Shown: positions 9,000 to 58,300 of the stretch, piece after piece | Layout: every line of letters starts with the position of its first letter | Position numbering within the stretch: the first letter of the stretch is position 1 | Origin: Gossypium raimondii | Taxonomy: Eukaryota > Streptophyta > Magnoliopsida > Malvales > Malvaceae | NCBI RefSeq assembly: GCF_025698545.1 | Contig: NC_068575.1 | Span: 61,637,980-61,701,979 of the forward strand | DNA: 64,000 nt | Reading direction: 5' to 3' | The notes under the pieces: generated by a model | What the model saw: only the letters and a program-made list of their open reading frames with translations | Database searches by the model: none | Told to the model about the DNA's origin: nothing | Made by a program: the position numbers and the translations under genes

Positions 9000-9480
9000 T
9001 GTTCCATATTTGTTGGATTATTCCTCTTTGATATTTAATATAAACTCATTTTCATCAAATGTTGGTCCTTGATCGAGTTCATCATCTTGAGAATATGAAT
9101 TTATATCATTAAAATTATCAAGATCTCTTTCATCCATGTACTCTTCAACGTATGAATCATCTTAAATCGACCTATAAATGAAACTATGAAATATGCAACA
9201 TGCTAGTACGATCTAACATTATTTCTTTTATGCTATACTAAGGTGATGCTGTTAAAAAAGAAATGTTTCTTTAAAACAACAAATGTTCTCTCAACCACAT
9301 TTTAAAACCTCGAATGTCTCAAATTAAAGAGTTCATGAACCATCTCTAGTGCTTGTGTTTAGCTTCATTCCCTCAAGTGATATCATACTCCATGACATAA
9401 TGCAAGAAAATTTTTTATATTTGCATAAGTAACATCTAACATATAATATTAGGGTTCACGATGCAAATAGCATGTAGTAT
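9000..9480 (-). pseudogene. Decayed PIF/Harbinger transposase (C-terminal part)
   Basis: Read on the minus strand, this shows three hallmarks of the HARBI1-like transposase C-terminus in the right order. First comes ELFNLRHSR, then NVVERTFVVLKKHF (usual form RNVIERTFGVLKKRF). The third is IVLACCIFHSFI (usual form IV.ACC.LHNFI), after a frame change near 9210-9250. An acidic tail, DDSYVEEYMDERDLDNF, runs to a stop at 9018-9020. A stop codon interrupts the region between RHSRF and NVVERT. The catalytic N-terminal part is not recognisable upstream (9480 onward on the plus strand is AT-rich). This is a DNA-transposon relic, not a working gene. Confidence 0.8.
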
Positions 9481-10038
9481 TAATCATAAAAACTCATATA
9501 AACTTAAGCTAGAAAAATAATTGTGCTAGGTTATAACATTTTTATAATATATTAATTAAGACAAAAATATATAAAATCTATAATATATAATTTTTATAGT
9601 CTAATAATTTTCATAACATTTTTATAAAAAATATAATTTTTGTCATAATTTTAAAAAGTTATTTTCTTTTACAAATAAGTTATAATAAAAACTATAACAC
9701 TTTTTTTTTACCAATAAGCATATTATTTTTATAATATATAGTGCAGACACATAATTAAGTTATGTCGATATTTCTTAGCCATAAGTTTTATAAATATATT
9801 ACACTTTTATAACATGTAGTTATTTTTATAATAAACTTTTTATCATAACTTTAAAAATAGGATTTAAATAATATAAATTTTGTTATAATCGTATAAAGTA
9901 CACAAAATTATTTTTTATAATATGATTTTTAAGATTTATAATATAATAAATCTTAAGTCATAATTATCCTAAACACTCATTCATACTTATAATATAAAAA
10001 TTATAACTTAGTATAAAAATAATATTTTTTAAAACTGA

Positions 10039-10199
10039 ATTTGGGTGTAATCAAGCACATAATTACTATAATTCTCACCCTTAAAATTAGAAAGTGTAAT
10101 TGGGATGCTCCAATTACATCTAATTCAATGGTATCTATAAATTATAATGGTTATCCAAACATACCACCATCTGTAATTACAAGTAATTATACCCAAATC
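10039..10199. mobile_element. Small inverted-repeat (MITE-like) element
   Basis: ATTTGGGTGTAATCAAGC at the left is mirrored by GTAATTATACCCAAAT at the right. Internal GTAATTGG/CCAATTAC motifs are also palindromic. No coding capacity. Lying 600 bases from the Harbinger relic, it could be a related non-autonomous element or that relic's far terminus; neither could be shown. Confidence 0.45.
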
Positions 10200-11687
10200 T
10201 AATTATTAAGTGGCTTTCTAAACACTACCTAATGTAAAAAAAACGGTATGACACATCCAACAAATGAAAATGTATCACATGGCATTCATTTTGATATGAA
10301 ATTGATGGTGTGGAATTCATTAAGAAAACATTCAAAATATATTTTTATAATATTTAAAAATATATAAAATAGAAAAAAATTAAATTTAAGAATAATTTTA
10401 TAATAAACAAATTATATAAAAAATATAAAATGATAAATAAGTTTAAATTGAAAACATTCAATTCTTTATAATATCAATTATATAAAATTTTAAAAATTAT
10501 ATAAGCTATAAATAATTAAAAATTCTAAAAATTTAAATATATATTAAATAGTCAATGATCAATTCGCGTTTCAATAGTTATATTATCGATCAATAGCCAT
10601 GAAAGACAAAGAAAATGATGAACACGTGCCACGTTTTCATTGGTTAAATATGCCATCAATTTCTTTAACATGGTTAATATTAATATAATTATTTTTATTT
10701 AATTTTTAATACATTTAATTATTAATAATTTTAATTCATATTTAATATTTTTAAAATATTTTGGAGTAATTATTAAGAATATCAAAAGAAAGACCAAATT
10801 GATTATTAGCCCATTAAACTAACGTTCCACGTCATTATTTTTAATGGAAGAAAATGGATGAGTAACACAAATGTAACAATTCAATAACATTAATAGTTAT
10901 TACATAAATTTTAAAAGTTGAGTGGTCGAAATATAGATTGAGTTGGTATAATTTGTCCCTTTATACTAAAAACTAAAATGAAAAGATAATTAAGTTTCAA
11001 ACTTGGGCTTTGTACGTGCGAATATAGGCCTTAAGTACCACGGAGAACTCCCACACGAAGTAGAATCATCCTTTTCAATACCATTATCGCAACTTAGGCG
11101 GTTTATGATCCCATATAAATAGAAACCTGAAATACCCCCTAACTTATATTTTGATCAAAATCAGAGCATCTAGGGTTTCAATCGTCCCAAATTTGACTTG
11201 ATTTCCTCTTTCCATCGCAGGTATTCTCGTTTTTCTCCCTTTTTAGGCTTCAATTTTCATTGAAATTTAGCATATATGCTACGATGACCACTTCCTATTG
11301 AATCACCGATTGGTTCTTAATTTCGCGATTGTTTGTTACTAAATTAGTACTTTTTTTAAACATTGATTATATTTTGTTGTTTTTAAGTGAAATGTTCCTT
11401 CAATCTTTTGGTTTTAGGGTTTAGATTGATTTTCGCTTCTGAAATTTGATACGGTCGCTGTTTTTTTTTCCTATGTTCCATTTAGACATATTTAGAAGTT
11501 CAATAAATTGGATTCGATTGCTTGTGTTGCTCTATTTGTTGAGTTGTTGACAAAATATTTACCTTTAGAATGATGTATGTGGCGTTATCTAAGTAATTAC
11601 AAAGATTGGTTCCTTCTTTCTTTTTCTTTTCTCGAAATTCATATTTAACTTTTTTCTTCTTCTTCAGAGTTTAGAGGGATTCAGAAA

Positions 11688-27450: not shown

Positions 27451-29538
27451 ATGGCTTTGAGGTGTGTAATGGCGGTGTCCTCCCCCTGTTCGCCTGCAAC
27501 TGATGCAGTGGGTCGAAAGGTTTTCTTCTCGAAAACTCTCTCCCAATCGCACCGCACCTTCACTTTTCCTCTTTATTCAACGAACCGGAGCTCTACTGCT
27601 AGGATTGCCCGCTTTCGTTGCTTTTCTTCTGGTACGTCGTCACCTCTATCCCTTCTCAAAATATACTTGCTTGGAATTTTATATTTACCCTTAAATTTCT
27701 CTACAGCAAATCAATTTGTGGATATCCATTGAATTTCATATTCACTATGTTTCTTTTCCTTTTCCATTTTTGATAAAATTGCGATTAGAGACCTGTTTGA
27801 GTATTCAGCAGGACTACTAAATTTGAAATACTGCTGAGAAAACCCATCTTAGTTATCAACTCCTTTGGTCAGGGACGAAGACAAAGGGGGCAGGGCCTTT
27901 GTCCTCCCAAAAATGGTAGATCTGCCATTTAGTCCCTTAAATTTTTATTAAATTACATGTTAGTATAACAGTAAAATGCACTTTGGCCCCCAATAATTTA
28001 TGATTCATCTCTGCCCCCTAAAACAATTTTCTGGTTTCGTCCTTGCCTTTGGTAGCAGAAAGAATATCTTAAAAAAAAAAAAAAAAGAACCACAGCTTTA
28101 ACTTTAGAGAAAGCATACGCCAAAAGATACCCATTTGTTTTTCTTGACTTCCAGGTGCCTTAGGGTAACGATAGCCCTTATATTGTTGTGTTCACTTTAG
28201 ACATGCTTGTTGCATACTTGTGATGAAAGGAGATTAATAGTATCAGCTCATAAGTCAAATATATTTGGGATTAGGATAAATTAATGTAGGCTATGATATG
28301 TAATAACCTTGTTTAGATACTAATGAAGCACTTACATTGTATTAAGTGTAATCATGGATGATTTTATTAACAAAAAGAAGTTTTGTATGTGCAGCCTTAA
28401 CTCCTCAGCTAAAGAATACATTGGATAAAGTGGTGACATCAAACAAGGTGGTTCTTTTCATGAAAGGAACTAAGGACTTCCCACAGTGTGGGTTTTCAAA
28501 TACGGTAGTGCAGATTTTGAATTCTTTGAACGTTCCTTTTGAAACCATAAACATATTAGAGAACGAAATGCTACGTATGGGTCTGAAGGAGTATTCCAGT
28601 TGGCCTACCTTTCCTCAACTTTATATCGAAGGAGAGTTTTTTGGTGGTTGCGATATCACTGTTGGTAAGCTTCTTGTTAATTTCACTTTGCTATTTTTTT
28701 TTAGTATTAAAAAAAAAAAAACTCACTTTCATATGTAAATAAATTGATAAAAGTACCATGGAGGCTTTGTTATGAGGCCATTGTACAAAAAATCAGATTG
28801 CATTTTATTTCCTTTACTTTTAAAATGGGCAAATTAATCCTTGTATGATAGATCAAAAAGCAAACTAGTCTTTTCTGTTAAAAGTTTTATCCATTTAGGG
28901 ACTAATTTGTAGTGTAAAAATGGATGGAGTTTTTAACAGAAGGATTGGTTTGCTCTTTGATCTAATATATAGGGACTAATTTGCTCATTTGTTGAGTAAA
29001 AAAGGTAAATGCAATCCAACTCTTAATATAAGGGCCTTCATGGTACTTTTACCAAATAAATCTGGTTTTAGGCAATTGATTGGTAAAAGAATCATAGAAG
29101 CTCTTGTACTACGAGTCGGATTGCATTTTCTAGCCTCTGTTCAAAAAATGAGTAAATTAGTCCTTGTACGATAAATCAAGGAGCCAATTGGTCATTTTGG
29201 TTTTTGGTCAGTCATGTCAATTTTTAACAAAAAAAGATCAATTTCCTTTTTTACCTAACCTATTGAGATTAATTTGTCTATTTTTTGAGTAGAGCGATAA
29301 AATACAATCTAACTCTTAATACAAGGACTTCCATGATACTTTACTTTTCCTAATGTTTGTTATATATAGCATCGATGATCAATTCATGGATTGTATACAT
29401 TGTTACTTTCTCATTTTAAGAGTAGTTTCTAACATTGTGTTTTGTAAGTATTTTTAATGAATCCTTTCCTTTTTACGTACAGAAGCATATAAAAATGGGG
29501 AATTGCAGGAACTATTGGAGAAGGCGATGTGCTCTTAA
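27451..29538 (+). CDS. Monothiol CGFS glutaredoxin, chloroplast (GRXS14/CXIP1-like)
   Basis: A 168-residue protein. Exons: 27451-27631, 28395-28664, 29483-29538. Residues 1-60 are rich in Ser, Arg and Thr with few acids (MALRCVMAVSSP, RIARFRCFSS), a plastid transit peptide. The mature domain follows: LKNTLDKVVTSNKVVLFMKG, TKDFPQCGFSNTVV with the CGFS active site (Cys about 92), the glutathione-binding region SWPTFPQLYIEGEF and GGCDI. CGFS glutaredoxins bind a glutathione-ligated [2Fe-2S] cluster as dimers and pass it to acceptor proteins in the stroma. The ATG at 27451 is the first in frame. Introns 1 and 2 contain repeat insertions. Confidence 0.95.
27872..28042. mobile_element. Repeat with GGACGAAG ends in GRXS14 intron 1
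   Basis: GGACGAAGACAAAGGGGGCA at the left is answered by GCCCCCTAAAA and TTTCGTCC at the right, as imperfect inverted repeats. The inside carries CATTTAGTCCC and CTTTGGCCCCC motifs. Similar sequences appear at about 26135-26385 and 57340-57570, so this is a family in the window. Confidence 0.6.
28748..29345. mobile_element. Two MITE-like units in tandem in GRXS14 intron 2
   Basis: The unit at 28748-29053 starts TAAAAGTACCATGGAGGC and ends GCCTTCATGGTACTTTTACC. A second unit at 29081-29345 starts TGGTAAAAGAATCATAGAAG and ends ACTTCCATGATACTTTA. Both contain GAGTCGGATTGCATTTT-like and GACTAATTTGCTC-like motifs. Other copies of the family are at 38048-38367, 49202-49460 and 56396-56622. None encodes a protein. 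Confidence 0.8.
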
Positions 29539-30169: not shown

Positions 30170-31879
30170 TCACAGTGCCATAGAGATGGAAAAAAAGAAT
30201 ACGATGGTAACTCCAGTCAATGATATCCTGTCAGCACCTCCATTTTGATCTGCAGATCGTCCTCCTATAAAAATATTAACAAAATTATTATGATATTAAT
30301 AAAAACAAAACTAAATTCGAACCCAATCTCATATTGTACAAGCGGATGTGTTATGCCCAATACACAAATGCCCCTAATTCTTTGAAGTAAATTGGTTCAA
30401 TCAACTTACCAGATTAATATTAATTTAAATTCTAATGTATAGAGATTAGAGAGAGTTTAAATTAACTATTAGTAGTTGATGCAAATAGATTTACATAACT
30501 TGAGGGACTCGACTATAAATAAAAGTTTACTCAACTCAACTTCACTCCACTTGTATCATTTAAATTAGTATTATTACATTTTTTCTTAGTTAAAATATCG
30601 AGTTTGAGGCCGATTGAGTCTTAACTCAGTTGGTATCAACATTATTGCCTATAAAAAAAAAGTGGGTTCGAATGGATTGAAGTGCATTATATTCTTATTT
30701 AACAGTTTGGGAAAAGCTATGAGTAGTTTTAAGCATTGTATCAAAAAATAAATATTAGGAATTATGATATTACACTTATATGGATTCGTAAGAGAAATGA
30801 TTCGATTTTTATATTGTAATTTAATTCGATCTGTAATTTTTGTATTAATTATAAATTCTTCTATCAAAATATTATAATACAGCATTGTTTGGTTCCACTA
30901 AGCAGTTAGACATTAATGAAAATCACTTATTTTCTATAGTTTTCAAGTCAACTTTGAGAACCACATAAAGCAAAAAATTCAAAGTCCAGCTGACAATGGC
31001 ATCACCACCAGCCCCTCTTATTGACATTTATGATAACTTCAAGTATGTGGCCCCAAAATAAAATAAAAACTAAATTAAAGTAAAAATAAATTTTTAGTAG
31101 TAGCTACTAGCTAGTAGGGTTTCATTCACATGTTTTCTGCTGATAGAAATAAAAAAAGAACAAAATAAATATTTAATATTTAATATTATTCAGATTCTTT
31201 TTTGGATTTTAATTTTTTAAATTTAAATATTATTCGATATTTGAAATCTATTAGCAAAATCTAGTTCATTTATGCAAATAAGCATACTTAATTCTTATTT
31301 AATCTTATAATTTTGTTACCTGGTGGGGATGTAGCAGAGCTTGTAGAAGTGCCTGCAGAAATGAGAAGACAGACAGAGAGAGAGAGAGAGCAATTAATTT
31401 ATTAATCGAAATTATAGAAGAAATTAGTATACAGAGATGAACAGCTTTTGAACAAAGACTTCACTTAGAGTAAACGGAAAAATACAAATAAATAAAATGG
31501 TTTTTTTTTTTAAATTCAAACCAAATTTTTATCAAATCAAATTGTATATATGAGTAATTAGAAACTTACTGTTGCTGTTGCAAGCGGTTAGATCAGTAGT
31601 GACGCCGCATTCACGAGTGACATTGAGAGCTTGCGCGGTGGAGATGTTCAAAGAAGCAAAAACTTTAGGGTCTTTGTAGAGGTTACAAAGGCAGGAAAGA
31701 TCGTTGGCTACCTCTTCCTTGATCGGGTTACAACAGTCGTCTTGAGGTTTGATGGTGGTGTTTAGGATGTAACGAGAACAAGACACTAGCTTTGCCGCGC
31801 AAGTTGCTTGCGCGTCCGTAACGGTTGCCGCCGTCGACACCGCAACCAGGAGAACCGCCATGATCATGAGGTTAGCCAT
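30170..31879 (-). CDS. GPI-anchored lipid-transfer-like protein (LTPG type)
   Basis: A 145-residue secreted protein. Exons: 31879-31570, 31352-31320, 30264-30170. The signal peptide covers about residues 1-23 (MANLMIMAVLLVAVSTAATV). The mature part has the eight-cysteine pattern C-C-CC-CxC-C-C, visible as ATCAAKLVSC, QDDCCNP, LSCLC, TREC and TAC. N-glycosylation sequons NTT, NIS and NVT are present. After the last Cys comes a Ser/Thr/Pro stretch (STSTSSATSPPG). A C-terminal hydrophobic tail (SLTGVTIVFFFSISMAL) is typical of GPI attachment, so it probably sits on the outer face of the plasma membrane or wall. LTPGs bind lipids and support cuticle and wall functions. The ligand cannot be told from sequence. 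The 33-base middle exon is small but keeps frame and sequence type. Confidence 0.88.
30610..30740 (+). mobile_element. tRNA-derived SINE-like fragment in LTPG intron 2
   Basis: TCTTAACTCAGTTGGTATC resembles an A box and GTGGGTTCGAATGGATTG a B box, in the spacing of a tRNA-derived SINE head. A degraded segment follows (GTGCATTATATTC, AAGCATTGTATC). No 3' tail could be defined, so only a part is claimed. Confidence 0.55.
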
Positions 31880-37421: not shown

Positions 37422-40400
37422 ATGGCAGCAGAGACAGCGCTAAGAGTATCGAGTTCGAGTTCTACTGTGTGCAATCTAAATGGGTTTCAAAGGAGACCAA
37501 CCCCTTTATCTTCTTCAACTCGTTTTCTGGGTCTTCGTCCTCGAGCTTCTTCTTCTTCAATTTCCTCTTCTTTATCCCAGTTCATGGGGAGTGTCAGAAT
37601 TGGCTCAAGACTTCCTATTTCACGTCAACAAAAGGGGAAGAGAAGGAACTTCTCTCTCTTTGCTATGGCCGCTGATGGTAAACGTTTTCCATTTCTGCGT
37701 TTTTTGGCTCTGTTCTTTTACTTGTTCTGGGTTACCGTTTTAAGTTATTTAGTTGAATTTTTCTTAAAATTTTATGAAGTAATTTGTTGTAATTTTGATT
37801 TGTTTTGTTATGTTTTGAATTTTTGAAGACTGGGTTTTTGTTGGTTCTAGCTTTAATTTTAGTTTTTTTCATCGCTTGGCAATAGGAAATTTGGTATGCT
37901 TGCTTGTTTAAGCTAATTTTCGGGTTTATTAATGCAAAAACTTAAAATATTTCCAAATGCTAATGTAAATTATTTGTCCTTTGATTCACATTTTTTAGTA
38001 TTCTTGTTTTTCGATGTAATGTGTTCCATTTATTTAGACAATTTTTTGGGTAAAAGTACGGCCGTGTCAAATTGCATTTTGCCTAAATGTACAATCATTC
38101 TATATTAGATTAAACAGTAAATTAATACTTTTGTTAAAAATTTAATCTATTTCTACGCTTAAAAATAGGCATAGCTGAAAGAATAATCAATTAGTGACAT
38201 GTGGTACACTACGTGTATCTCATGTTGATGCACAGGGATTGGATGAAAATTTTAACAGAAGGTCCAATTTATTCCTTCATCTAACGTATATGAACTAATT
38301 TGCCCAACTTTTGAGTAGAGGGTGCAAATTGCAATCCGGCTCCTAGGGCTTCTATGATGCTTTTATTATTCTTTTTCCAACTTTGTGAGTTTGTGAGATG
38401 GATAATTGGATATATATTTTTGGTTGTTAACAGAGTCAAAGCGTGCTGTACCTTTGAAAGATTATCGCAATATTGGAATTATGGCTCACATAGATGCCGG
38501 AAAGACAACGACAACAGAACGTATTCTATACTACACAGGAAGAAACTATAAAATTGGTGAGGTACATGAGGGAACTGCTACAATGGACTGGATGGAACAA
38601 GAGCAGGAAAGAGGTATTACCATAACATCGGCTGCAACTACTACATTTTGGAAAGACCACCGGATTAATATTATCGACACCCCTGGCCATGTTGACTTCA
38701 CACTTGAAGTGGAGCGAGCTCTCAGGGTTTTGGATGGAGCTATATGCTTGTTCGACAGTGTTGCTGGTGTTGAACCGCAATCTGAAACCGTATGGAGACA
38801 AGCTGATAAGTATGGGGTACCTAGAATTTGCTTTGTCAACAAGATGGATCGTCTAGGAGCAAACTTTTTCCGGACGAGAGATATGATAGTTACAAATTTG
38901 GGTGCTAAACCGCTGGTGATTCAACTACCGGTTGGTGCAGAAGATAATTTTAAAGGTGTCATTGACCTTGTAAAGATGAAAGCTGTGCTTTGGTCCGGGG
39001 AAGAATTGGGTGCAAAGTTTGAGTATGCTGATATTCCGGCTGATCTTCAAGAGTTGGCTGAAGAGTACCGATCACAAATGATAGAAACGATCGTTGAATT
39101 AGATGACCAAGCTATGGAGAACTATCTAGAAGGAGTTGAGCCCGATGAGGAAACCATTAAGAAATTAATTAGGAAAGGCACCATTGGAATCAGTTTTGTA
39201 CCTGTATTATGCGGCTCGGCTTTTAAAAATAAGGGTGTTCAGCCATTACTCGATGCTGTTATGGATTACTTGCCGTCTCCTCTTGAGTTGCCGGCAATGA
39301 AGGGGACTGATCCTGAGAATCCCGAAGTGATAATTGAAAGGACAGCAAGTGATGAAGAACCGTTTTCCGGATTAGCTTTCAAAATCATGACCGATCCGTT
39401 TGTGGGATCCCTTACATTTGTGAGGGTGTATTCAGGAAAGCTTGCTGCGGGATCTTATGTTTTGAATGCTAACAAAGGGAAGAAAGAGAGAATCGGTAGA
39501 CTATTGGAAATGCACGCTAATAGTCGAGAGGACGTTAAGGTTGCATTGGCCGGTGATATTGTTGCTCTTGCAGGTCTAAAGGATACTATTACAGGTGAAA
39601 CTCTTAGCGACCCTGACCATCCTATTGTACTTGAACGAATGGACTTCCCCGATCCCGTGATTAAGGTTGCTATTGAACCTAAGACTAAAGCTGATGTCGA
39701 TAAAATGGCTAATGGTTTGATCAAGCTTGCTCAAGAAGACCCTTCTTTCCACTTCTCACGGGATGAAGAGATCAACCAGACCGTAATTGAAGGAATGGGA
39801 GAATTACATCTCGAGATTATCGTTGATCGTTTGAAGAGAGAGTTCAAGGTTTGTAGCAACATCTAATTGCCAAACATATTAGTACCCTTGATCATCCCGA
39901 TGAACTATATGTGTACAGACATTTCTCTAATTGCCATTATTTTGATTGCTTGGTGCATGTAGGTCGAAGCCAATGTCGGTGCACCACAAGTTAATTACCG
40001 GGAAAGTATTTCCAAAGTTTCAGAAGTGAAATACGTACACAAGAAACAATCAGGTGGACAAGGGCAGTTTGCTGATATTACTGTTCGTTTCGAGCCTATG
40101 GAGGCAGGTAGTGGATACGAGTTCAAGAGTGAAATCAAAGGTGGAGCCGTGCCGAAAGAATATATTCCTGGAGTGATGAAAGGACTGGAGGAGTGTATGT
40201 GTAATGGTGTCCTTGCAGGTTTTCCTGTTGTTGATGTACGTGCCGTGCTAGTAGATGGTTCTTACCACGATGTCGATTCTAGTGTATTGGCATTTCAACT
40301 GGCAGCCAGGGGAGCCTTCCGAGAAGGGATTAGAAAGGCTGGCCCTAGGATGCTTGAACCTATAATGAAAGTTGAGGTTGTCACACCCGAAGAACATTTA

Positions 40401-40740
40401 GGTGACGTGATCGGTGATCTCAACTCAAGGAGAGGCCAGATTAACAGCTTTGGTGATAAGCCTGGAGGACTCAAGGTATATATGGGATCACATCATCATA
40501 ATATATGCTTTCTCCTTGTTTTGCTTGTAATATTATCGTGTTGATGAGTTTTGGTTTCGGATTAAACTGCAGGTGGTGGATGCCCTTGTTCCGCTTGCGG
40601 AGATGTTCCAATACGTCAGCACTCTCCGAGGTATGACGAAAGGTCGTGCATCCTACACCATGCAACTGGCCAAGTTTGATGTCGTCCCTCAACATATCCA
40701 GAACGAGCTTGCTACTAAACAACAAGAAGTTGTTGCTTGA
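37422..40740 (+). CDS. Elongation factor G, chloroplast (cpEF-G, SCO1-type)
   Basis: A 783-residue translational GTPase that moves tRNA and mRNA on the plastid ribosome. Exons: 37422-37677, 38434-39848, 39963-40475, 40573-40740. Residues 1-85 form a Ser/Arg-rich transit peptide ([19 protein letters not shown]). The G domain has [12 protein letters not shown] (P-loop, about 103), the switch segment [23 protein letters not shown] and NKMDRLG. Domain II follows ([15 protein letters not shown]). Domains III-V then follow, with [14 protein letters not shown], the domain IV start [16 protein letters not shown], and [14 protein letters not shown]. It ends [19 protein letters not shown]. The full family length is present. 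Arabidopsis SCO1 (snowy cotyledon 1) is the counterpart. Intron 1 holds a MITE-like element (38048-38367). Confidence 0.96.
38048..38367. mobile_element. MITE-like element in EF-G intron 1
   Basis: It starts GGGTAAAAGTACGGCCGTGT and ends GGGCTTCTATGATGCTTTTA, inverted. Inside are AAATTGCATTTTGCC and GGGTGCAAATTGCAATCC. It is the same family as the GRXS14 intron 2 units. Confidence 0.75.
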
Positions 40741-47311: not shown

Positions 47312-47877
47312 ATTGTAAAAGTGATCAATTTTAACTTAATTGCTTTTTTTCCTTCATAGTAAATTTGTACTTGCAATTGTCCGAATTTGAGTGGATTAAT
47401 CCATAAAAAAACTAGTTTTCAGTTGGAAAAATTGTTCAAAAGTTCGAATGGGATTTGATTTATTTTACTTTTTCTGTTTTAAAATCGTTTGTTCTCATTA
47501 CTCAAAATTTCTACTTGGAAGCAAGTAACATGCATGATCATTTAAACAGCAGGTATGATGAAATGTTTTGTATAGTTTCGTAAAATGAAGACTATGTTTT
47601 AGTGCAGAACCAGCAAAAAGCAGACATCAACTGATTTTTGGTTCATGGAGTATGAAACAGTTTCTGTGATTTTTTTTCAAACATCAAGCTTTCATTAAGA
47701 ACAATAAAAAAAGGACACTAAAAAACCCCAGTAAAACTTTACCTAACAGTTCTTTTGTTCTTTATTCAGTGAAGTCTTAAATATGCCCCATGTGATGCAA
47801 ATACTTGCAGAGACAACCAGAAAAAAAAGTAGTACTACGTTAAGCTTGTACAGGACAGTTGTACTTCTTATGAGTCC
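47312..47877. other. Convergent spacer between HOP and the PSY-like gene
   Basis: About 0.57 kb between two stop codons facing each other. It contains the two 3' regions. No repeat or gene seen. Confidence 0.5.
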
Positions 47878-48918
47878 TCAACTGCCGCCACCACCAGTTC
47901 CGGCTGATGTCCCCGGTTTTCCTCTCGGCGGTGGTTCGTGTTTAGGATTTGGAATAACCGGAGTATAGTCTTTTACAATGTCAACATCTAGTTTCAGCTT
48001 CCTCATCTTCACTTCAACCATATCCTTCAAAACCAGATATCAATCATCATAATATATTAGCAAAAGGTTAAATTCCACTACTAGTCTCTTTACTTTGTGA
48101 AAGTGGTGAATTTAATCCTTGTATTTTAATTTGATCACTTTTAATCTCTGTTCTTTTCAAATTTTTAAACATCAGTCCTCATCAAGTAGTAGCTATTAAA
48201 TTTATTATATTAAGTTCAGTTATTTTCAAAGTATGATGTGTCAAACACATTATCATGCGTAATATTATTTTTATATATTATGTACTAAAAATCTAGTTAA
48301 TGAATTAATGCATGTTATTTTCACCTAGATTGAAATTTTAAAATTTTAAAAAGTATAAGTGCTTCACCCAATTGGAGAATATGAACCAAATCTATATCCC
48401 TATTCATAGTAAAAATCAGTAATTGAATTTAACTAGACAGATTTAATCGCTATTATTTGGGTCGAACTAAAATTTTAAATTCAAAAATATAGAGATTAAA
48501 ATTGATCCATCTGAAAAATACAAAGATTAAAATTGAGCAAATTAAAATACAGGGAATAATAGCAAAATTCAACCTTAACAAATCAAAACTCCTTGAATCA
48601 TCAAATTCAAATAATATTTTATGGTAAATGAAACTTTTAGAGATGTTTTATGACAAATAGAAATTTTCAGATCCCTTGCTGTTAAGAGTTACCTCATTAA
48701 TTCCAGAGTCAGCTGAAGTTGCACCAGCATCCAAGCCCTTAACTTTGGCTACAAAATATAACCAAAAAGAAAATAAAAAAATAAAGATTAAAATCACCTT
48801 TTGTATCATCTTAGAATTAACTTGACTATGAGTGAATGGAAAATTTTTGCAGACCTATAAATGGAACAAGATAGAGTACCAAGAGAAGGAGAATCATGGT
48901 TTTAGCATAAGTACCCAT
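47878..48918 (-). CDS. PSY-type sulfated-peptide precursor (PSY1-like), 3 exons
   Basis: An 88-residue precursor with exons 48918-48855, 48748-48693 and 48024-47878, all with GT-AG borders and in frame. The start MGTYAKTMILLLLVLYLVPF is a signal peptide. A variable middle follows (AKVKGLDAGATSADSGINED), then a basic and acidic stretch and the conserved end DIVKDYTPVIPNPKHEPPPR. The core DY...P-x-x-NPKH-x-P matches the mature Arabidopsis PSY1 glycopeptide (DYGDPSANPKHDPGVPPS) from memory. That peptide is tyrosine-sulfated after Asp by TPST, then hydroxylated and glycosylated on Pro. Here the Tyr is preceded by KD, and Pro residues suitable for hydroxylation follow. The tail GKPGTSAGTGGGGS is low in complexity. 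In Arabidopsis PSY peptides act through LRR receptor kinases in growth and stress trade-offs. Family assignment rests on the motif and on architecture, not on a search. The large intron 2 carries a MITE-like element. Confidence 0.85.
48066..48574. mobile_element. MITE-like element in PSY-like gene intron 2
   Basis: GGTTAAATTCCACTACTAGT at the left and CAGGGAATAATAGCAAAATT followed by CAACC at the right are inverted. The inner arms GAATTTAATCC and GATTAAAATTG match. It fills most of the 0.67-kb intron. Confidence 0.7.
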
Positions 48919-49201
48919 GGTGGTGCTATCAGAAAATGGAGGAGACAAGATTGGAGATTTATATTGGTTGAGAAGGTGGCTAAATCCCCACTGTTTTGAA
49001 TAGCAAAGCTACTCAAAAGCTTTGTAGAATATTTATGAACATCCATTAGCAACAATACCACAAAAGTCTGAATGCCACTAACTTTCTGTCACCTCAATGA
49101 AACAACTCTGAGGTTTCCAAAAAGCATTTGTTAGGTTGCAATGCATGGTTCGGTTAGTCCCTACATAGTTTCTTTCGTGTAGGCATTGCCCAAGTCTTTT
49201 G

Positions 49202-49460
49202 GGTAAAATTGTAATAGAGGTTCATGTATTTGGAGTCGAATTGTATTCTGCTTTATTTGCTAATAAAATGGGTAAATTAATTTTGTATCTTAGATCAAAA
49301 GAGTAAAATAGTTTTTTTATTAAAAATTTAATTCATTTTTTGATTAAATAATCCGACAGTTACATGTGGCGTGATATGAACTAATTTGTTGAAATTTTTA
49401 ATGAAAGAGATAAAATACAATTCAGCTATTGATATAACAGTTTAAATGATATTTTTATCG
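49202..49460. mobile_element. Decayed MITE-like element of the GTACCATGG family
   Basis: It starts GGGTAAAATTGTAATAGAGG with GGAGTCGAATTGTATTCTG and continues to AAAATACAATTCAGC and ATGATATTTTTATC. It lacks intact termini. The order of internal motifs is as in the GRXS14 and EF-G introns. Confidence 0.6.
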
Positions 49461-55331: not shown

Positions 55332-58300
55332 ATGGCTGCTGCCAATCACTCACCTTCATCGCCTTACTCATGTGCTAAAGATTCAGGCCCTGTAATACCA
55401 ACAACCTCTTTAGTTACTTTCCTTGAACGTGTCCAAGAAACTGCTTTCCAAACTTACGAGAGATCAAAATTTGATCACAAAGACTTTATAGACTTGTCAT
55501 TAAAGTTCGATCTTTCAACCACAGTGAAGTCGTTCGATGAAATTTCCAAGACAGAAAATGGGTCAGTGTCGACTAAGGATTTTGAAGAGTTTATAGGAAA
55601 GTGGTTTAAAGGTGCAGGAGAGGATCTTGTTTATGTTGAGCCAATGGATTTTGAGACGGAGCCATATGGGTTTTTGCCCAAGGTGGAGAACCCAGAGGTG
55701 AGAGCTTGGGCATTAGAGGTGCATGGTTTGTGGAAGAAACTGAGTAGGGAAGTTTCGAGCTCGGTTCATGATCATCCTGAATTGCATACTTTGCTTCCTT
55801 TACCGGTGCCTGGTATGATCCCTGGTTCACGGTTCAGGGAAGTTTATTATTGGGATTCTTATTGGGTTATCAGGTTAGTTTTGATTTTCCTTTTTAACTT
55901 TTTGCCTTCATATGAAGATATAAATGTGATATAAATGGTTGTGCAGAGGGCTGCTGGCGAGTAAAATGCACGAGACAGCAAAAGCCATTGTGACTAATCT
56001 CATTTCGTTGCTAGATACATATGGTTATGTACTTAATGGTGCCAGAGCCTATTACACGAATCGAAGGTAGTGGTGCTTTCATTTATTTTCTTCCCATTGT
56101 TTGTAGGGACATTTTGTGAAAGGTAATTTTTTTAAAAAAAAATTCTTTTAATATAACTCAGTCTTAAAGTTTAATTCAATCAGTTCACGTATATTTTCTT
56201 ACCTTTAAGAGATGATAGCTAGTAAGCTCAGGATTCGAATATCTTTGATTTTATTCCTTCCTTTCTTAAATAACTTTTATCACCCTAATCTCGCATTGAA
56301 AAAACTCTTAAGACCAGCTATAATATATATACATAGAGACTTGAAAGTTAAAAATTGTGAGCAATCACTAATAAGAATATAATAGCTAAGTGAGTAAAAG
56401 TATCATAAAGGTCCCTATACTATGAGTCAAATTGTATTTGACCCCTTTTACTCAAAAAAATGATAAATTAGTCCTCTTCTTTTAAAGCAAAAAACAAACC
56501 AGTCATTTCTGTTAAAAATTTCATCCATTAAAAACTGAGTTGACTGATGGAATAATCAAAGAGTAGAAGGGGACAAAATGCAAATTGACTCCCAGTAGAA
56601 TGGCCTTCATGGTGCTTTTACTGAGCTAAGTGCTTAGCCACCTCTAAAATCCCAAAAGTTCAGTGGCTTTCAAGCCTTGCAGGTGAATTGCTCATGGAAG
56701 TATTTACAAGGTTTGAGGTACCCTTTTTTTGCAGCCAGCCTCCACTCCTGAGTGCAATGGTTTATGAGATATACAATAGAACTGGTGATGTGGATTTGGC
56801 GAAGAAGGCTCTCCCTGCATTGCTTAAAGAATATCAGTTCTGGAATTCAGGTATACTAATTACCCTTCACTTGTATGACCAATTTCTTGCTTGTTCTAAC
56901 TTTCCCGGAAAATAAGATTTAACTTCCTCTCACACTAAAAATCTTTCTTCAAATTGAGCTTTTTTTCTGAGTTTGAACTATGATGTAGAAATACATACGA
57001 TGATCATCCATGATGCTGAGAATTGTAATCACTCATTAAACCGGTATTATGCAATGTGGAACAAACCCAGGCCTGAAGCATCAGCCATTGTGTGTTCTTG
57101 TCTTCAACTTCCTTTTACCTTTGCTAGTATTTTCATGTTGTATATTTGAGGAATTTTTTTTAACATGATCATATGTACCAGGATAAAAGATTTGCTTCCA
57201 AGTTCTTGAATGTTAATGAGAAACAGAAATTTTACCGAGAGCTTGCTTCAACTGCTGAATCTGGATGGGATTTCAGCACAAGATGGATGAGGTTATACAA
57301 ATTATACTTTCATTTATAGCTTTTCATCAGAGGAGAATTCAGAATTTTTTTTAGCAGGGCTGGACTTTAATTATAATTTTTTCATAGATCTAAATATAAG
57401 TTTACCAAGTATTAAATGATAATTTCATCCTTTTTAAAGGGACTAAATAGAAATTTTTCCATTTTTAGGGGGGTTAAAATGCAATTTTAGTATATTAATT
57501 TATAATTTTTCTATTTATAAGAAGACTGAATTGAAAAAATTTTCATTTTTGGAAGGTCAAAGCACCTGATTATGCCCTCGTATTCAGCTCTGATGAATTG
57601 GTTAACTACAGCTATGTTATTCATATCAGGGTGTGGGTGATGAATGTAATGTGTCTAACACGAATTTATCCCCAAACACGTGTCTGAATATGTGGCGGAG
57701 GTAGTATTAGACACTGATATTTCAAAAACAATGTAGAGTTTCGAATCAACCATTGAGCTAGAGGTGAATTTAGAGCAGTCAAGGGCTTCAACCCCTCCAA
57801 ATTAGAAACAAAAATTGTCTTTTAGTCCTTTATAAATGCTAAAATTAAAAATTAATATATGATAAAAATACATTTTAAATCGAAAAGATTTCTATTTAGT
57901 CCTTCAAAAATGATGAATCTATAAGTTAATACAAAATAAAATTACACTTTAACCATATAAAAATTTATAATTCAATTCCAACCCTCTTAATAAAAACATT
58001 CTAGCTTGGCCCGAGACTGTTGTATTTTACGAAGGACATTTTTACTAATCAAATATATGAAATCTTTGTTATAGGAACCCTTCTGAATTTACAAGTTTGA
58101 GCACAACAACTATTTTACCTGTTGATTTAAATGCATTCATGCTGAGGGTATGTTGTAACTTTCTCTTTTAATAACACCTATGAGATCAGTAACACCTTGG
58201 ATGTTCATCCATTTCTTGATATATGTACAGATGGAACTTGACATTGCCTTCTTTGCGAAAATTGTTGGAGACGATGCCATTGCTGAGGATTTCCTTACAG

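What the first reader, a model, noticed from the sequence alone, without database searches (positions are those of the whole stretch)
47878..48918. Hidden PSY-type sulfated-peptide gene between HOP and BiP
Each of the three exons is too short to be called from ORFs alone. Joined by good GT-AG sites they give an 88-residue precursor with a signal peptide and a C-terminal DYTPVIPNPKHEPPPR motif. This matches the PSY1 core (DY...NPKH-x-P) as known in Arabidopsis. A single tyrosine after an acid is what tyrosylprotein sulfotransferase needs. The residues around the core (TPVI in place of GDPSA) differ from PSY1, so it may be a divergent member.
Basis: partly seen in the sequence, partly recalled or inferred. 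Interest (0 to 1): 0.75.

Follow-up and report, generated by a model that had tools for sequence, protein, structure and literature searches.

The report
Divergent PSY-type plant peptide hormone gene
A small three-exon plant gene between two chaperone genes encodes the precursor of a short peptide of the known PSY growth-hormone family; it looks like a real but divergent member, not a new kind of signal.

Summary
On the minus strand, exons 48918-48855, 48748-48693 and 48024-47878 join through GT-AG sites into an 88-residue precursor with a hydrophobic N-terminus and the core DYTPVIPNPKHEP. The core meets the published PSY motif DYXXXX[AP]NXXHXP; about 0.0004 such matches are expected by chance in 64 kb. 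The plant's own genome gives the strongest support. A paralogue on contig C9 keeps the three exons and both phases, with dN/dS 0.38-0.47 by three methods. An upstream stretch with a TATA-like site is conserved. A HOP paralogue lies 0.44 Mb from it. Five further PSY genes fit the same two intron phases. An RxLx subtilase-type site precedes the core. Best reading: a functional, divergent PSY precursor, secreted, sulfated on Tyr60, trimmed to a peptide starting at Asp59 and sensed by PSYR-type receptor kinases. Gene structure, family motif and constraint are shown; expression, sulfation, processing and receptor are inferred. On a core profile it scores below all nine Arabidopsis PSYs but above all 17 other DY-peptides tested. 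Ordinary, but correctly spotted.

The parts
48855..48918 (-). exon 1 (64 nt, ends in phase 1): start codon and signal-peptide-like region, residues 1-21
   Evidence: hydropathy peak LLLLVLYLVPFI, Kyte-Doolittle mean 2.97 against at most 0.46 from residue 31 on
48749..48854 (-). intron 1, 106 nt, GT-AG
   Evidence: 85 nt at the same position and phase in the C9 paralogue
48693..48748 (-). exon 2 (56 nt, ends in phase 0): variable propeptide
48025..48692 (-). intron 2, 668 nt, GT-AG
   Evidence: 323 nt in the C9 paralogue
47878..48024 (-). exon 3 (147 nt): propeptide, PSY core, Gly/Pro-rich tail and stop codon
   Evidence: same length and 64% protein identity in the C9 paralogue
47992..48003 (-). 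RKLK, an RxLx site of the SBT6.1 type, residues 48-51
   Evidence: motif from PMC7913133 section 4.2; cleavage not tested
47932..47970 (-). PSY core DYTPVIPNPKHEP, residues 59-71; Tyr60 is the only Tyr after residue 26
48956..48967 (-). TATA-like CCAATATAAATC, conserved in the C9 paralogue; if used, the 5' leader is very short
49005..49096 (-). conserved upstream (promoter) stretch, 79% identical to C9
   Evidence: blastn; alignment
47761..47766 (-). AATAAA, 112 nt after the stop (candidate polyadenylation signal)

Best explanation
The locus is a functional nuclear gene for a PSY-family (plant peptide containing sulfated tyrosine) precursor. The product enters the secretory pathway through its N-terminal signal peptide. 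TPST sulfates Tyr60 in the DY pair; prolyl hydroxylases may modify the Pro-rich end. A subtilase may first cut near RKLK (SBT6.1-type), and an Asp-directed cut frees a mature peptide that starts at Asp59 and ends near Arg74 or beyond. The apoplastic peptide is then sensed by PSYR-type leucine-rich-repeat receptor kinases and shifts the balance between cell growth and stress response. Shown here: gene structure in DNA, family motif, exon layout shared with relatives, purifying selection between paralogues, conserved upstream stretch. Inferred from the family: transcription, secretion, sulfation, processing, receptor and function.
For: Strict PSY motif met. Seven of seven PSY genes modelled in this genome have 3 coding exons with phases 1 and 0. 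The borders of the relatives were picked by eye with the window model in mind; a phase-blind consensus score then put the chosen phase-1 donor of exon 1 first in 7 of 7, and the chosen exon-3 acceptor first in 5 of 7, tied in one (C2a) and behind one other in one (C12). Paralogue on C9: dN/dS 0.38 (NG86; 0.47 LWL85, 0.42 YN00), exon 3 0.29 (NG86; 0.33 LWL85, YN00 failed); NG86 values this low in 4 of 1000 and 3 of 1000 neutral simulations, which were conditioned on no stop codon. Gaps in the coding alignment are multiples of 3 while introns differ in length. blastn similarity to C9 in the gene region falls on exon 3, on exon 1 with its 5' flank, and on an upstream stretch. A HOP paralogue at C9:45,534,170, one of two HOP places at E<=1e-30, lies 0.44 Mb from the C9 PSY gene. 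RxLx/RxxL site between signal region and core in 5 of 7 members; the two without are the PSY6/8-type ones, in line with the report of the SBT6.1 site in Arabidopsis PSY1-5. Core profile score 14.3 against at most 7.2 for 17 non-PSY DY peptides.
Against: The core scores well below the nine Arabidopsis PSYs scored leave-one-out (28.4-42.5), and TPVI replaces the usual small or acidic residues. The paralogue has Ser where the motif asks Ala/Pro. Differences between the paralogues lean only mildly to third codon positions (22, 21, 28 over 84 codons), and exon 2 gives no blastn match to C9 at 1e-10. No Pfam family matched; no transcript, peptide or signal-peptide predictor was available. Published wheat and tobacco texts report three introns in most PSY genes (passages), against two coding introns here; a UTR intron would not be seen by my method. 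A second test of the duplicated block, EF-G, found no copy on C9.
Confidence: 0.88

Rival explanations
1. A decaying or silent PSY duplicate: family ancestry is real but the gene no longer yields a working ligand, which would explain the divergent core.
For: Core diverged from the canonical pattern in both copies, and the C9 copy loses the Ala/Pro position. No expression data.
Against: Open frame, GT-AG splice sites, dN/dS below neutral simulations in all but 3-4 of 1000, conserved upstream stretch and TATA-like site; DY, N, PKH and EP kept in both copies.
Confidence: 0.08
2. A precursor of another DY-starting sulfated peptide family (RGF/GLV/CLEL or CIF/TWS) that resembles PSY by convergence.
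For: These families share the DY start, a precursor of similar size and a short peptide motif (PMC11534595 Table 1).
Against: None of the 17 non-PSY peptides scored above 7.2 on the PSY profile, window 14.3; the window peptide has none of the HN, NN, IPN or IPH endings of that table; the 3-exon phase 1/0 layout is shared with PSY6/8-type genes in the same genome.
Confidence: 0.02
3. Chance: a random motif assembled from unrelated sequence by choosing splice sites.
For: Exons are short and splice sites were chosen by eye in the first stage; Pfam gives nothing.
Against: About 0.0004 strict motif matches expected in the window; the C9 paralogue has the same borders and five more family members fit the layout.
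Confidence: 0.01

Closest known systems
Arabidopsis PSY5 (At5g53486), DYDDAGPNPKHDPRRRPGGKG
   Same: 8 of 13 core positions identical, the most among the nine Arabidopsis PSYs; PNPKH, and a basic Arg/Pro/Gly-rich tail (peptide from PMC11534595 Table 1)
   Different: TPVI in place of DDAG; Glu for Asp after His; longer Gly/Ser/Thr tail
Arabidopsis PSY1 (At5g58650), DYGDPSANPKHDPGVPPS
   Same: DY, NPKH and P of the core; DY sulfation site; short precursor (75 aa in the table, 88 aa here)
   Different: 7 of 13 core positions identical; TPVIP for GDPSA; PPPRGKPG tail for GVPPS
C9 paralogue in the same genome (L003), core DYGPVTSNPKHEP
   Same: Same 3 exons and phases, 64% identity in exon 3, upstream stretch conserved
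   Different: Ser at the Ala/Pro position; one extra Gly after EP; 85 aa
PSY mimics of pathogens: RaxX of Xanthomonas and MigPSY of root-knot nematodes (sections of PMC7913133, passages of PMC10629525)
   Same: Reported to share the DY...NXXHXP plan
   Different: Encoded by pathogens; not compared by sequence here; this gene is an intron-bearing plant gene

Membership tests
PSY (plant peptide containing sulfated tyrosine) | Core DYXXXX[AP]NXXHXP (PMC7913133, PMC11641228) | tested here: met
   DYTPVIPNPKHEP, residues 59-71
PSY | Precursor of 60-200 aa with the motif in the C-terminal region (PMC11641228 criteria) | tested here: met
   88 aa, core at 59-71
PSY | N-terminal secretion signal peptide | tested here: inconclusive
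   Strong hydrophobic stretch at residues 10-21, as in the six other members; no dedicated predictor was run
PSY | Exon layout shared with other PSY genes of the genome | tested here: met
   7 of 7 modelled genes: 3 coding exons, phases 1 and 0; borders picked by eye, then scored phase-blind
PSY | Core resembles known PSYs more than other DY peptides | tested here: met
   14.3 bits against at most 7.2 for 17 others, but below 28.4-42.5 for Arabidopsis PSYs leave-one-out
PSY | SBT6.1-type RxLx/RxxL site (reported for Arabidopsis PSY1-5) | tested here: met
   RKLK at residues 48-51; presence of the motif only, cleavage not tested
PSY | Sulfated tyrosine in the mature peptide | not testable with these tools
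   Asp before Tyr60 is present; needs mass spectrometry
PSY | Perceived by PSYR1-3 type receptors | not testable with these tools
   needs binding or root-growth assays
RGF/GLV/CLEL and CIF/TWS | Peptide endings of their Table 1 entries (mostly HN or NN in RGF/GLV; IPN, IPH and similar in CIF) | tested here: not met
   by inspection of the table against the window peptide

The most novel reading that the evidence does not exclude
The C11/C9 pair defines a PSY subclass with a hydrophobic P-V-[IT] centre and a PPRGK[PS]GT tail, kept under purifying selection after duplication, that may have a receptor preference or role different from canonical PSYs.
Probability: 0.2. Interest if true: 0.45.

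Novelty: new member of a known kind. Interest (0 to 1): 0.3.

Why it matters
It adds a well-supported, divergent ligand candidate to a peptide-hormone family that sets the growth/stress balance and is copied by pathogens. The paralogue pair shows core positions that changed (3, 6 and 7) and ones kept (DY, P4, V5, NPKHEP), which is testable with synthetic peptides. Beyond that it is ordinary gene annotation.

Tried and rejected
Pfam and PDB sequence search with the 88-aa protein: 1 weak Pfam match and 5 weak PDB matches. The Pfam match and the top three in PDB are foamy-virus-type envelope proteins (Pfam E 0.28, residues 12-54; best PDB E 0.011, residues 12-87), below Pfam's cut-off; rejected as chance. 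PSY1 mature peptide as whole-genome query: nothing, and the tool notes that an empty answer shows nothing. PSY5 as query: one weak hit (E 0.25) that proved to be a PSY gene. NPKH[DE]P pattern: 51 of 53 places rejected for lack of DY at the right spacing. ANT-x-HDP pattern: 1 place (0 in the control), a PSY gene. ANN-[RS]-H-type pattern: 5 places (2 in the control), 2 of them PSY genes and 3 rejected. Window against 90 kb of C9 by blastn: 19 matches. Three belong to the PSY gene and its upstream stretch. Two more stretches (1038-1439 and 9151-10233) lie in one order and orientation at C9 45.083-45.090 Mb, with the PSY gene inverted relative to them; no stop-free stretch of 60 aa was seen at 9000-10400, two of about 70 aa at 900-1500, and their nature is unresolved. 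Most of the rest look like repeats. Block duplication therefore rests on PSY plus HOP; EF-G has no C9 copy. Naming the species through annexin exons against PDB: inconclusive.

Rows dropped or cut before counts: in the profile test PSK peptides and GLV9 (EY start) were left out of the non-PSY list; PSY, RGF4, GLV8, CIF and TWS1 peptides longer than 13 residues were cut to 13; the C12 member (core with an inserted EH) was not scored.

Full report
What is there. On the minus strand the sequence holds three short exons, 48918-48855 (64 nt), 48748-48693 (56 nt) and 48024-47878 (147 nt), separated by GT-AG introns of 106 and 668 nt. Joined, they give MGTYAKTMILLLLVLYLVPFIAKVKGLDAGATSADSGINEDMVEVKMRKLKLDVDIVKDYTPVIPNPKHEPPPRGKPGTSAGTGGGGS, 88 aa. 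The most hydrophobic 12 residues begin at residue 10 (Kyte-Doolittle 2.97; at most 0.46 from residue 31 on). After residue 26 there is no Cys and one Tyr, Tyr60, which follows Asp59. A TATA-like CCAATATAAATC lies at 48967-48956 and an AATAAA 112 nt after the stop. The gene is tail-to-tail with HOP and divergent from BiP; those neighbours were confirmed by Pfam (TPR and STI1/HOP-DP; HSP70) and by the HDEL end.

Is it more than chance? The published PSY search motif DYXXXX[AP]NXXHXP (PMC7913133 section 4.1; used again for wheat, PMC11641228 passages) is met by DYTPVIPNPKHEP. The six-frame window has one match; 0.00044 are expected at order 0, and 300 order-2 Markov simulations gave 0 strict and 4 loose matches. 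In the whole 751-Mb genome, 53 places match NPKH[DE]P at the DNA level (11 for the reversed pattern). All 53 were looked at in frame: 2 of 53 have DY at the PSY spacing, and these are this gene and a copy on contig C9.

The paralogue. C9:45,092,843-45,092,977 (L003) aligns with exon 3 at 68% identity (E 1.5e-11). Reading upstream gives a complete gene of three exons, 64, 47 and 147 nt, with the same phases (1 and 0), 85 aa, core DYGPVTSNPKHEP. dN/dS over 84 codons is 0.38 (NG86), 0.47 (LWL85) and 0.42 (YN00); over the 47 codons of exon 3 it is 0.29 (NG86) and 0.33 (LWL85), YN00 failing. Neutral simulations, started from the window sequence and conditioned on no stop codon, reach the NG86 values in 4 of 1000 and 3 of 1000. 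The differences lean only mildly to third positions (22, 21, 28). The introns differ in length (106/85 and 668/323). In the gene region blastn finds exon 3 plus 7 nt, exon 1 with 14 nt of intron and 56 nt of 5' flank, and an upstream stretch (49005-49096); exon 2 and the bodies of the introns give no match at 1e-10. The upstream alignment holds the TATA-like site. HOP has two places in the genome at E <= 1e-30, in this window and at C9:45,534,170 (93% identical), 0.44 Mb from the PSY paralogue; so the two PSY genes most likely arose with a duplicated block. Against that, EF-G from the window has no C9 copy, and the PSY gene is inverted relative to two other weakly matching stretches near it on C9.

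The family in the same genome. Five more PSY genes were found: C2 (core DYEETGANTKHEP, L006), C12 (DYDDTGANQKHEHDP, L067), C6 (DYEETGANTKHDP, L069), C2 again and C7 (both DYPGSGANNRHTP, L070 and L072). All 7 of 7 models have three coding exons with phases 1 and 0. I picked the borders of the relatives by eye with the window model in mind, so the agreement is not independent. As a check, a phase-blind consensus score of every GT in the first open frame and every AG before the core put the chosen donor first in 7 of 7; the chosen acceptor was first in 5 of 7, tied for first in C2a and behind one other site in C12. Seven is a lower bound, because short peptide queries and exact patterns miss members; the PSY1 query found nothing. 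In five of seven an RxLx or RxxL site lies between signal region and core (RKLK in the window gene); in the two PSY6/8-type genes the only such match is within the signal region. PMC7913133 section 4.2 and Table 3 report the SBT6.1 site for Arabidopsis PSY1-5, which fits.

How divergent. Against a profile of the nine Arabidopsis PSY cores (PMC11534595 Table 1), the window core scores 14.3 and the C9 core 19.3. The Arabidopsis PSYs score 28.4 to 42.5 leave-one-out, and 17 RGF/GLV, CLE18, CIF and TWS1 peptides score at most 7.2. The gene is thus a PSY by motif, layout and kinship, but an outlying one: TPVI replaces the usual small or acidic residues. Closest by identity is PSY5, 8 of 13.

How it most likely works. 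By family knowledge (PMC7913133: part 1 of the text, sections 4.1, 4.2 and figure legends/tables; PMC11534595: two sections and passages; PMC10629525: passages): secretion, sulfation of the DY tyrosine by TPST, subtilase processing, release to the apoplast and perception by PSYR receptors, which regulates the trade-off between growth and stress response. None of these steps was tested here. TPST activity depends on an acidic neighbour, which Asp59 provides. The window gene differs from PSY1 at the GDPSA positions, so receptor preference could differ.

Points that do not fit smoothly. Wheat and tobacco reports speak of three introns in most PSY genes (passages); here two coding introns were seen, and a UTR intron cannot be excluded. 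The C9 paralogue has Ser where the motif asks Ala or Pro, so the strict motif would miss it, while the family layout includes it. No annotation or transcript of this species could be consulted, so 'hidden' is untested. Two literature searches that assumed cotton showed no dedicated PSY survey among the papers listed (20 of 56, 15 of 380); that is a look at capped lists of an open library, not proof of absence, and the plant's identity as cotton is a recalled guess.

Verdict. Observation confirmed, interpretation supported; a divergent new member of a known family.

Noticed in passing
window 49202-49328; also 28774-29342, 38238-38365, 56394-56621; C9 about 45,110,166 and 45,134,950: A repeat of about 130 bp, found in both orientations, recurs in the window and in the C9 region; one copy lies about 284 bp upstream of the PSY start codon. 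Possibly a small transposon.
   Followed up: no
window 9151-10233 and C9 45,088,327-45,089,648: About 1 kb of 71-81% DNA identity with no stop-free stretch of 60 aa seen at 9000-10400; on C9 it lies about 2.7 kb from the start of the PSY paralogue. Repeat or conserved noncoding DNA.
   Followed up: partly
C12:55,264,757-55,264,894 (L067): A PSY gene whose core carries an extra EH (NQKHEHDP), so the H-x-P spacing is broken or shifted.
   Followed up: partly
C7:45,881,823 (L072): A PSY6/8-type precursor with a C-terminal extension ending in RCADC; it has two Cys after residue 26, where the six other members found here have none.
   Followed up: no
window 38406-40544, 55332-55931, 28358-28735, 31532-31879: Other ordinary genes by Pfam: EF-G, trehalase, glutaredoxin and a lipid-transfer-type protein.
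   Followed up: partly
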